This document shows, piece by piece, positions 44,732 to 49,209 of a stretch of DNA of 64,000 bases. The notes under the pieces are model-generated. The model did not search any database. It saw only the letters and a list, made by a program, of their open reading frames with translations, and was not told the origin of the DNA. Where the stretch lies: the NCBI RefSeq assembly GCF_000011225.1, contig NC_004432.1, positions 806,001-870,000 of the forward strand. The letters run 5' to 3'. The translations under genes were made by a program, and so were the position numbers. The first letter of the stretch is position 1. Every line of letters begins with the position of its first letter. This DNA comes from Malacoplasma penetrans HF-2. GTDB taxonomy: Bacteria; Bacillota_I; Bacilli_A; Mycoplasmatales; Mycoplasmoidaceae.

Positions 44732-44760
44732 AAATAAATATACAAATTCAAATTTATATA

Positions 44761-44843
44761 TTATCACTTGCCTCCGCTAGTACTAACTAGATCAGGTCAT
44801 AAGCGTATTTTCTCAGCCATATTTTAATGGCACCGCCTGATAA
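44761..44843 (-). ncRNA. TPP riboswitch (THI element)
   Basis: Read on the minus strand: closing stem TTATCA/TGATAA, then GGCGGTGCC, GGCTGAGAAAATACG, and GACCTGATCTAGTTAGTACT followed by AGCGGAGGCAAGTGA. CTGAGA, ACCTGATCTGGTTA-type and AGCG.AGG.AAG are the conserved core of the TPP aptamer. It precedes a terminator hairpin and the p37-p29-p69 genes, so high TPP should shut off the transporter. Confidence 0.96.
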
Positions 44844-44969
44844 CATATTTTGATTATAAATCTTAAATTTAAGTATTTACATAAATGTTAGTTATATTAA
44901 TTTCAAATAAAAAATAGAGTTGAATAAACTCAACTCTATTTTTAGTTTGTTTTGGTTAGTAGAAATTTA

Positions 44970-46142
44970 TTATGAACCAATATCAATTGTTACTGGGAAA
45001 GTAATATCTTTTGCTTCTGTTGTACCATCATCTCAAACATAAGTATTATTACCTTCTTTGTTAGGAGTAGCTTTTAAAGTAATTTCATATGATGTAGCAG
45101 TAGCTGCTCTTGCTGTTACTGTAGCTTTTTTAATACTCGGAGATGAAAAAGTAACATTATAAATTCCAAGTGCTTTAATTAAAGCTTCATTATTTAATGC
45201 TCCTTTATCATCAGTAGCTAAGTTTAAATCTTTTAAAACTTTATTAACATCAACATCACCTTCTGTAGTTGCAGCAGACTTTGCACTTCCTTGATCATAA
45301 TGTTGAGTAGAATCTATTCCAATATTGAAATTGAATTCAGTTGTAGTTTTAGTAGTATCAGTTGATTCAATATTTTTTCCTTCAACTTTTACAGATAAAT
45401 TGCTTACAACTAAATTAATATCAGATGTAGGAATTTGAAGATCATGTTGAACAGTTGATTTGTCTGATTTAGTTTCTATTACATTAACATGTACTAGATC
45501 ATCATTTGTAAGAGCTGGTTGATTTTTAATTTCAAATGCTGTTGATGTTTCTGCAGTTGAAACCCCTGCATCTTTTAAAGCATTTTTTAAAACATCAGTC
45601 TTTTGTAGTTCTGTTTTAAGATCATCTAAAGATTTAATATTAATTTGATTTGACTTTGTAGAATAAAGAACTGGGTTTAAATCAGTTATAGCACTTCAAC
45701 TCTTATTTGGATCTTTTTTACTAGCATCATCTGTATTATCTACATATGGAAGATCAGTTCAGTTTGTTAATTTTTCTGGGAATCCACCATCTACAGTAAT
45801 TTTTAAATCTGTTTCAGCTGCTAATTTTTCACCATTTTTAAAAACATCTTTAATATTGTTTTTAATTTCTTCAGCTATTAATTCATTACTTTTTTTAGTT
45901 CCAGTAGAATCATAAATATCTTTTAATGATCCTGCTAAGCTAACTTTATCATTTAATTCAGGTGTGATTTTTTCTGATTGAGTATTTCCATCAGATCCTC
46001 CACCATTATTATTGTTTCCATTTCCATTATTGTTATCACTTGTAGAAGAACAAGAAGATACAATTACTGGAACTGTTGCAACAATCCCAAAAGCTCCGGT
46101 TAATGCAAGAGCTTTCAATAATTTAATTTTTTTAATTTTCAT
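44970..46142 (-). CDS. P35-family lipoprotein P12, the only one with its promoter ON
   Basis: 390 residues, intact, VSSC (Cys31), linker of Asn and Gly. A-type: DLVHVNVIETKS, IPTSDINLVVSNLSVKVEGKNIE, TEFNFNIGIDSTQHYDQG, NNEALIKALGIYNVTF, closing NTYVWDDGTTEAKDITFPVTIDIGS. The invertible segment ahead (46234-46392) has its TATATAAATG box pointing at this gene, so in the sequenced cell line this should be the expressed surface lipoprotein. It is the first member of the array upstream of the transporter operon. A terminator of the usual kind follows (AAAAATAGAGTTGA with its partner, about 44910-44943). Confidence 0.93.
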
Positions 46143-46233: not shown

Positions 46234-46392
46234 TAACATAAATTAACTCTACCTTTTTAAATGCTATCCATTTAACATATTTCATTTATATACCAAAAAT
46301 GGTTTAAATGGTTACTAATTGTTATCAAGAAAATAATAATAAACATATATTTTTAGCATTCTGTTAAGTTTTTGGAGAAATAATTTATGTTA
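46234..46392 (-). promoter_or_regulatory. Invertible promoter of P12, ON orientation
   Basis: TAACATAAATTA at 46234-46245, inverse at 46381-46392. Opposite to all others, TATATA (46287-46292 on the minus strand, with TGG before it, -35 about GTAACC) faces the gene; RNA should start near 46280. The arm ACTCTACCTTTTT now lies on the gene side (46246-46258), so the distal side (46393-46406) has no partner and no hairpin can form. Confidence 0.9.
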
Positions 46393-46404
46393 ACTCTACC
46401 TTTT

Positions 46405-46585
46405 TTATGTTAGAAACCCTAGACCTTATTAATACACTTACTCATTTTCTCTAATCTATGTTTTTTAATTTAAAGAAAGAGTTCTGTAAATAAGTGACTT
46501 AGCTAAGTATTATTTTCAAAAAAAATAAAAAAGTAGTGTTTAGTAATTAACACTACTTTTTAGTTTGTTTTAGTCAATAGTTTTA
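46405..46585 (-). terminator. Spacer with separate terminator of P13
   Basis: AAAAGTAGTGTT (46529-46540) and AACACTACTTTT (46549-46560) form a hairpin with a different arm (GTAGTG) and a loop unrelated to the P12 repeat, so P13 keeps a terminator whichever way the P12 switch stands. Nothing is recognised in the 120 bp between. Confidence 0.75.
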
Positions 46586-47752
46586 TTATGAACCAATTTT
46601 AATTGTTACTGGGAAAGTAATATCTTTAGCATCTGATGTTCCATCATCCCAAACATAAGTATTGTTACTATCCTTATTTGGAGTAGCTTTTAAAGTAACA
46701 GTATATTTTGTATCAACTGGAGCTCTTGATTGCACTGAATCTTTAGTAACCTTTGCATCATCTAATGAGAAAGTAACAGTATAAACTCCAAGTGCTTTAA
46801 TTAATGCTTCATTATCTAATTTAGTATTGTTGCCATCTGCAGTTGCTAATTTTAAATCTTTTAAAACTTGTTCAACTTTTACAGCATCTTCAGTTTGAGC
46901 TGTTGAAGTTTCAGAACCTTGATTATAATGAGTTGTTGTATCAATTCCAATATTGAAATCAAATTCAGTTGTAGTCTTAGTATTTTCAGTTGTTTCAATG
47001 TTTTGTCCTTCAACCTTTACAGTTAAATCACTTACAACTAAATTAATATCAGATGTAGGAATTTGAAGGTCATGTTGAACCTTAGTATCATCAGACTTAG
47101 TTTCTTCTACATTAACATGAATTAAATCATCATTTGTTAATCCTGGTCTATTTTTAATAGTAAATGATTTTGAAGTTTCTGTAGTTGTTACTCCACCTTC
47201 TTTTAAAGCTGCTTTTATTGTAGCTTCATCCAATTTAGTATAAAGATCATCTAATGATTTAATATCAATTTGTTTTGAAGTTGTAGGATATAAAACTTTA
47301 TTTAAACTTGCTGTTGCACTTCAACTTTTATCAGCTGTAGCATTATCAGCAGTCTCAGAAGAATCTAGATATGGAAGATCTTTTCAATTAGATAAAGTTT
47401 CAGGAAAATTACCATTTACAGTAATTTTTAAATCTGATTCAGCAGCTAATTTTTCACCATTTTTAAAAACACTATTAATATTAGCCTTAATTTCTTCAGC
47501 TATTAATTCATTAGTTTTTTTAGTTCCTGTAGAATCATAAATATCTTTCAATGAACCCCCTAAACTAACTTTTTCATTTAATTCAGGTGTAATTTTTTCT
47601 GTTTGAGTAGTTCCCCCAGAACCTCCCCCTTGATTATTTCCACCATTGTTGGTTGAAGAACAAGCAGAAACAATTACTGGAACTGTTGCAACAATCCCAA
47701 AAGCCCCGGTTAATGCAAGAGCTTTCAATAATTTAATTTTTTTAATTTTCAT
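46586..47752 (-). CDS. P35-family lipoprotein P13
   Basis: 388 residues, intact. VSAC (Cys31), followed by CSSTNNGG rather than CSSTSDNN. A-type throughout and very close to P12 and P15: DLIHVNVEETKSDD, IPTSDINLVVSDLTVKVEGQNIE, TEFDFNIGIDTTTHYNQG, NEALIKALGVYTVTF. It closes NTYVWDDGTSDAKDITFPVTIKIGS, where the last Trp is TGG instead of TGA. The switch ahead is OFF. Confidence 0.92.
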
Positions 47753-47840: not shown

Positions 47841-47999
47841 TAATAAGAATTACTTCTAAAAAAGTGAAACAAGATACAAAAATTTTTTGCCTTTTATTTC
47901 ATTTTGGATATCAATTATTAACAATCTAACTTATTTTTGGTATATAAATGAAATATGTTAAATAGATAAAAATGAAAAAAGTAGAGTTAATTCTTATTA
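47841..47999 (-). promoter_or_regulatory. Invertible promoter of P13, OFF
   Basis: TAATAAGAATTA at 47841-47852, inverse at 47988-47999; the same address as P4, with almost the same flanks. TTAACA, 17 bp, TGGTATATA face right. The hairpin at about 47975-48012 ends P14. Confidence 0.88.
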
Positions 48000-48048
48000 A
48001 CTCTACTTTTTTATTGATAGTTTGTTTTAAAAATATTTAGATATTTAA

Positions 48049-49209
48049 TTATGAAGTAGTAGTAACATCTACTTTTACATCAAATGTAACTTTTTTAGTA
48101 GTATTAGAATCAGAACCATCAGATCAAACATATTTTTCACTTTGTGGTTTAGCATCTAAAGTAATAGTATAAGTTTTTTCTGCTCTAGTTGTTGCACCTT
48201 CTTTTGGAGCAATTGTAGGATTAGAGAAGTTTACATTATAAACTCCAAGTGCTTTAATTAAAGCTTCATTATTTAATGTACCATTAGCATCAGTTGCTAA
48301 GCTTAAATCTTGAAGAACTTTATTTACTGTTACAGCTGCATCATTAGCTGCAGTTACAGTTGTACTACCTTGGTCATAATGTGTTTCTGGTTCAATACCA
48401 ATATTGAAATCATAATTTGTTGTTGTTTTTTGAGATGTTTCAATATTAGTTCCTTCAACTTTAATAGTTAAATCAGTTACTGACAAGTTGATATCAGATG
48501 TTGGAATTTGAAGATCATATTGAGTTTTAGTTCCACTCTTATCTCCTTCAACATTAACATGGATTAAATCACCATTTGTGAAACCAGCTCTATTTTTAAT
48601 CGTGAAAGTTGTAGTATCTGTATCAGCTACACCTGCACCTTTCATAGCATCTTTAAGAGTTTGTTCCACACTTAATTTAGTATGAAGATCATCTAAAGAT
48701 TTAATTTCAATTTGATCTGAATTTGTAGCATAAGTAACTTCTTGTAAACCTGTTGTTGCTTTTCAACTTTTAGCAGCAGTTGCATTTTCACTTGTTTCTG
48801 AAGAATCAAGATAAGGAAGTTCTTTTCAAGGAGATTCTGATCCTGCAGTAGTGAAATTTCCTTCTACTGTTACAGTAGCATTTTTAACAGCTTCTTTTAC
48901 TGCTGATTCACTACCATTAGTAAAATAATTTTCTGGATTTTCTTTAATATCTTCAGTAATTAAGTCATTAGTAGTTTTTCTATTTTCACCTGTAGTAGTG
49001 TCATAAATTTTACTCAATGAACCACTTAGACTTACTGAATCTTTTAATACTGGAGTAACTTTTTGAGTTTGTTGATTATTATTTTCTCCTCCTGTATTGT
49101 TATCACTTGTTGAAGAACAAGAAGAAACAATCACTGGAACTGTTGCAACAATTCCAAAAGCCCCGGTCATTGCCAAAGCTTTCAATAATTTAATTTTTTT
49201 AATTTTCAT
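48049..49209 (-). CDS. P35-family lipoprotein P14
   Basis: 386 residues, intact, VSSC (Cys31). N-terminal block TPVLKDSVSLSGSLSKIYD. A-type: DLIHVNVEGDKSGTKTQYD and IPTSDINLSVTDLTIKVEGTNIE, TNYDFNIGIEPETHYDQG; end LNNEALIKALGVYNVNF; closing SEKYVWSDGS. The segment GDKSGT(K/Q)TQYDLQIPTS is shared with P1 and P18. The switch ahead is OFF. Confidence 0.92.

What the first reader, a model, noticed from the sequence alone, without database searches (positions are those of the whole stretch)
46234..46406. Inversion takes apart or rebuilds a terminator as well as turning the promoter
The 12-bp distal repeat is the centre of the hairpin GTAGAGTTAA...TTAACTCTAC. Its left arm lies inside the invertible segment and its right arm outside. 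In OFF loci the hairpin is whole and sits directly before the outward promoter. In the ON locus (P12) one arm has moved to the gene side, so no hairpin can form. One recombination thus couples promoter direction, blocking of the wasted promoter, and termination of the upstream neighbour. Whether this coupling has been described I cannot verify.
Basis: partly seen in the sequence, partly recalled or inferred. Interest (0 to 1): 0.8.

Follow-up and report, generated by a model that had tools for sequence, protein, structure and literature searches.

The report
Known terminator-splitting mycoplasma promoter switch
In this Mycoplasma penetrans genome, flipping a small promoter segment in front of each surface-lipoprotein gene also breaks or rebuilds a transcription-stop hairpin; this is real and repeated at more than 30 genes, but the core of it was already reported in 2003.

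Summary
At P12 the exact 12-bp inverted repeats are 46234-46245 and 46381-46392, 135 bp apart. The distal repeat is the centre of GTAGAGT[core]ACTCTAC, with one arm inside and one outside the invertible segment. I examined 34 such elements. In the OFF form the distal hairpin is strong (mean -13.5 kcal/mol, z -6.7) and has T-runs on both sides at 34 of 34. In the ON form it falls to -3.4 (z -0.6) and no T-run remains.

At most loci the hairpin is the only terminator of the upstream gene. At P12 it is not: the neighbour has its own terminator at about 46530-46559. Weak stems also persist in ON, so 'no hairpin can form' is overstated. The arms probably double as recombinase-binding arms.

It is not new. 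PMC8614714 attributes to Horino et al. 2003 exactly this: a hairpin likely acting as terminator, destroyed by ON inversion. E. coli fimS/fimE and C. difficile cwpV are related precedents. Verdict: already known, with quantitative additions here (covariation, backup terminator, second ON locus, predicted ~60-nt outward RNA).

The parts
46234..46245 (.). gene-proximal 12-bp crossover core TAACATAAATTA of P12 (ON)
   Evidence: exact inverted partner of 46381-46392
46246..46380 (-). 135-bp invertible segment with promoter, pointing at the gene on the minus strand (ON)
   Evidence: inverted relative to sibling loci
46381..46392 (.). distal 12-bp crossover core TAATTTATGTTA; centre of the split hairpin
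46246..46258 (+). hairpin arm ACTCTACC plus T-run that belongs to the distal hairpin in the OFF form; now on the gene side
   Evidence: sequence; OFF form rebuilt
46393..46406 (+). outer hairpin arm ACTCTACC plus T-run, outside the invertible segment
   Evidence: sequence
46284..46295 (-). putative extended -10 promoter TGGTATATAAAT
   Evidence: conserved in most elements; located; assignment is inferred
44970..46142 (-). lipoprotein gene switched by P12 (P35/mpl, Pfam MpPF1)
   Evidence: Pfam PF07668, E 3e-107
44912..44941 (-). standalone terminator of the P12 gene (AAATAGAGTTGAGTTTATTCAACTCTATTT)
46530..46559 (-). standalone terminator of the upstream neighbour, GTAGTGTTAATTACTAAACACTAC plus T-run; makes neighbour termination at P12 independent of inversion
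46586..47752 (-). upstream mpl gene
47841..47852 (.). proximal core of the next element (OFF)
47979..48008 (.). intact distal hairpin of the next element (OFF): sole terminator of gene 48049-49209, core begins about 49 nt after its stop

Best explanation
The element is one of about 34 tyrosine-recombinase promoter switches of the M. penetrans P35/mpl family. Crossover takes place in a 12-bp core. At the distal site the core's flanks are a perfect palindrome with A/T runs on both sides. When the promoter points away (OFF), the two arms face each other and form an intrinsic terminator that works in both directions. It ends transcripts of the upstream gene, so an OFF gene in a tandem array is insulated from an ON neighbour, and it ends the misdirected promoter's RNA after about 60 nt. 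Inversion to ON carries the inner arm and its T-run to the gene side. The terminator is lost just when the promoter faces the gene and insulation is no longer needed. Shown: anatomy, arm exchange, predicted stability, base-pair covariation. Inferred: actual termination, the insulation role, RNA length. The arms are probably also recombinase-binding arms.
For: Two ON loci show the arm exchange that inversion predicts. Folding: OFF distal -13.5 (sd 1.9), ON distal -3.4 (sd 2.2), T-run of 4 or more on both sides at 34/34 distal sites versus 1/34 and 0/34 at proximal sites. One stem pair swaps A-U and G-C across the inversion boundary (Fisher 2e-7; 12 double changes in 27 distinct sequences, 0/500 shuffles; the slid controls show none), while the same position at the proximal site does not follow. 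Hairpin position is 39-60 nt after the upstream stop at 21 of 26 sole-terminator loci. Standalone terminators after mpl genes without an adjacent element have related arms with compensatory variants (GTAGTGT/ACACTAC, GTAAAGT/ACTTTAC, ATAGAGT/ACTCTAT). Gene 877416-878543, just upstream of the ON element 877218, has no terminator-like site within 300 nt. Literature agrees.
Against: No RNA data. P12's own neighbour has a backup terminator. Similar GGTAGAG...CTCTACC arms occur around an apparently invertible segment at a DNA methylase in relatives without T-runs, so arm conservation alone may reflect recombinase binding. The covariation is one pair; the tree has few supported branches (3 supported independent pairs), and hairpin self-templating or gene conversion could also make it. 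The divergent locus 967985 does not fit the rule.
Confidence: 0.82

Rival explanations
1. The palindromic arms exist only to bind the recombinase (a Xer-like site: about 10-bp arms, 6-bp spacer). The hairpin is incidental and promoter direction alone sets expression.
For: GTAGA-type arms are present at both proximal and distal sites. The same arms occur in two relatives at an apparently invertible DNA-methylase start with no T-runs. Such symmetry is typical of tyrosine recombinase sites (own knowledge).
Against: T-runs flank only the distal site (34/34 versus 1/34 and 0/34). The position-8 covariation is distal only. The site sits where the upstream gene's terminator should be, with no other candidate at 26 loci. 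Related standalone terminators lack the 12-bp core.
Confidence: 0.12
2. The terminator serves only the upstream gene's 3' end, the element arose next to it by chance duplication, and loss in ON has no regulatory meaning.
For: Genes without an element have related terminators at the same distance. P12 has a backup terminator, so ON costs nothing there.
Against: The hairpin centre coincides exactly with the crossover core and has T-runs on both sides at all loci, which a one-way 3' end would not need.
Confidence: 0.2

Closest known systems
Mycoplasma penetrans mpl (P35) invertible promoters, Horino et al. 2003 and 2009
   Same: Same system: 12-bp repeats, about 135-bp promoter segment, MYPE2900 recombinase, and a 16-bp-arm hairpin upstream of the promoter, thought to be a terminator, that ON inversion destroys (reported in PMC8614714 and PMC3047005).
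   Different: The originals are not in the library, so I could not check whether they discuss the outward promoter, the upstream neighbour or backup terminators.
E. coli fimS with the detachable Rho-dependent fimE terminator
   Same: One inversion connects or disconnects both the promoter of the downstream operon and the terminator of the upstream gene (PMC9993118).
   Different: Rho-dependent terminator carried inside a 314-bp segment; not an intrinsic hairpin whose loop is the crossover. It affects production of the FimE recombinase.
C. difficile cwpV switch (RecV)
   Same: An intrinsic terminator at the repeat/segment junction forms in one orientation only (PMC2784873).
   Different: The promoter is outside the invertible segment; the terminator is in the gene's own leader and does the switching.

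Membership tests
M. penetrans mpl invertible promoter | P35-type lipoprotein gene downstream | tested here: met
   Pfam MpPF1 'M penetrans paralogue family 1', E 3e-107
M. penetrans mpl invertible promoter | 12-bp inverted repeats flanking about 135 bp | tested here: met
   exact 12-bp pair, 135 bp between
M. penetrans mpl invertible promoter | promoter faces gene in ON, away in OFF | tested here: met
   conserved promoter-like block inverted in P12 relative to siblings; transcription not measured
M. penetrans mpl invertible promoter | 16-bp-arm hairpin destroyed by ON inversion | tested here: met
   AAAAAAGTAGAGTTAA/TTAACTCTACTTTTTT; OFF -13.5, ON -3.4 on average
M. penetrans mpl invertible promoter | tyrosine recombinase MYPE2900 mediates inversion | not testable with these tools
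   genome has two phage-integrase genes; assignment from PMC3047005
fimS/fimE-type coupled switch | inversion changes termination of the upstream gene | tested here: inconclusive
   predicted at the 26 sole-terminator loci and at ON locus 877218; not predicted at P12, which has a backup terminator
fimS/fimE-type coupled switch | Rho-dependent terminator | tested here: not met
   the structure is an intrinsic-type hairpin with U-tract; mycoplasmas are said to lack Rho (PMC2268961)

The most novel reading that the evidence does not exclude
The distal recombination site is a dual-code sequence, recombinase site and bidirectional terminator at once, selected as an insulator that keeps dozens of tandem switches independent. 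Adjacent ON genes then become transcriptionally coupled unless a backup terminator exists.
Probability: 0.35. Interest if true: 0.45.

Novelty: already known. Interest (0 to 1): 0.25.

Why it matters
It shows how a tandem array of independently switched surface genes can avoid cross-talk: an OFF gene carries a terminator that disappears only when it is switched ON. The basic fact is published. What remains testable is whether neighbouring ON genes are coupled by read-through, which would shape surface-antigen combinations.

Tried and rejected
Looked for the same hairpin elsewhere: no exact match in genome contigs or viral contigs, though records near the window's genome may be left out there. 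Same-genus lipoprotein arrays in G008 and G005 lack mpl-type elements; only a related site at a DNA methylase was found in G008 and G006. The Horino 2003 and 2009 papers are not held, so their content is cited second-hand. A same-species second genome to catch ON/OFF polymorphism was not available. Rejected the A/T-only pairs TAATAATTATTA near start codons as elements. Treated 'no hairpin in ON' as too strong after folding both junctions.

Full report
Setting. The window is positions 806001-870000 of a single-contig 1,358,633-base genome. The size (from memory), the TGA=Trp reading and the Pfam family 'M penetrans paralogue family 1' identify it as Mycoplasma penetrans HF-2 and its P35/mpl lipoprotein array.

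Observation. P12 has exact 12-bp inverted repeats at 46234-46245 and 46381-46392 with 135 bp between. I collected 34 elements next to lipoprotein genes in this genome: 33 with exact repeats and one with a single mismatch, at 878635/878783. Most cores fit TAAYNNNNATTA and differ between loci, while the two copies within a locus match. In OFF loci the distal site reads AAAAAAGTAGAGT[core]ACTCTACTTTTTT: one arm outside and one inside the segment. P12 and the locus at 877218/877365 carry the inner arm and its T-run at the gene side instead, as an inversion through the core predicts.

Is the hairpin more than chance? The OFF distal stem averages -13.5 kcal/mol and the ON form -3.4 (31 loci). Against dinucleotide shuffles the mean z is -6.7 for OFF and -0.6 for ON (34 loci). 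T-runs of four or more flank the distal stem on both sides at 34 of 34 loci, but the proximal site at 1 and 0 of 34. One stem pair switches between A-U and G-C with 12 double changes in 27 distinct sequences and no shuffle as high. The corresponding proximal position does not follow. Parsimony gives about ten switches, though few branches are well supported, and hairpin self-templating or gene conversion could contribute.

Relation to the upstream gene. At 26 of 31 OFF loci the element hairpin is the only terminator-like structure between the upstream stop and the promoter, and at 21 of these the core starts 39-60 nt after the stop. Lipoprotein genes without an adjacent element have standalone terminators with related arms and compensating changes. 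This favours a real terminator role. It also shows that P12 is atypical: the neighbour 46586-47752 has its own terminator at about 46530-46559, so the claimed orientation-dependent termination is not expected there. At the second ON locus no backup is present: gene 877416-878543 has no terminator-like site within 300 nt. That gene's own element is in the OFF orientation in this assembly.

The outward promoter. A conserved extended -10-like block TTTTTGRTATATAAATG lies a few tens of bases before the hairpin when OFF. A start a few bases after it gives an RNA of about 60 nt ending in the T-run. This is a prediction.

Residual structure. The ON junctions are not structure-free: -4.2 at the distal and -10.5 over a longer window at the proximal junction of P12. 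In the OFF form the proximal site of P12 is itself a -13.3 hairpin.

Rival. The arms also look like tyrosine-recombinase arms around a 6-bp spacer. In two same-genus genomes the motif GGTAGAG...CTCTACC marks an apparently invertible segment at the start of a C5 DNA methylase without T-runs. The best reading is dual use: recombinase arms onto which the distal site adds perfect symmetry and T-runs.

Prior knowledge. PMC8614714 states, citing Horino et al. 2003, that in M. penetrans a hairpin made by 16-bp inverted repeats upstream of the mpl promoter likely acts as a terminator and that inversion to ON destroys it. PMC3047005 confirms the 12-bp repeats and the active recombinase MYPE2900. In E. 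coli, fimS inversion connects or disconnects both the operon's promoter and the fimE terminator (PMC9993118). In C. difficile cwpV, inversion forms an intrinsic terminator at the junction (PMC2784873). The finding is therefore real but already known in its core. The originals by Horino could not be read here.

Noticed in passing
L031:3819-4002 (genome 938819-939002): An orphan OFF-type invertible element next to two genes (936508-938683) that look like an IS21-type transposase pair and may separate it from the MKIWKK-type lipoprotein gene 935471-936325; a related switch outside the P35 family.
   Followed up: partly
   Followed up: partly
genome 967985-968155 (L006:7985-8155): A divergent element where a perfect GTAGAGT/ACTCTAC hairpin (-13.9) sits on the gene side in the apparent ON orientation, opposite to the rule.
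   Followed up: no
L038:3291-6699 (genome 1096291-1099699): The second tyrosine recombinase of the genome lies beside two oppositely oriented hsdS-like genes, a likely type I restriction specificity shuffler.
   Followed up: no
window 44752-44847 (minus): TPP riboswitch (Rfam RF00059) before a CypI thiamine-binding lipoprotein and ABC transporter genes, lying between two parts of the mpl array.
   Followed up: yes
genome 836737 and 853841, 841071 and 866604, 842532 and 868012, 843950 and 872654: Four pairs of loci share identical 12-bp cores, so recombination between them could in principle rearrange the array.
   Followed up: no
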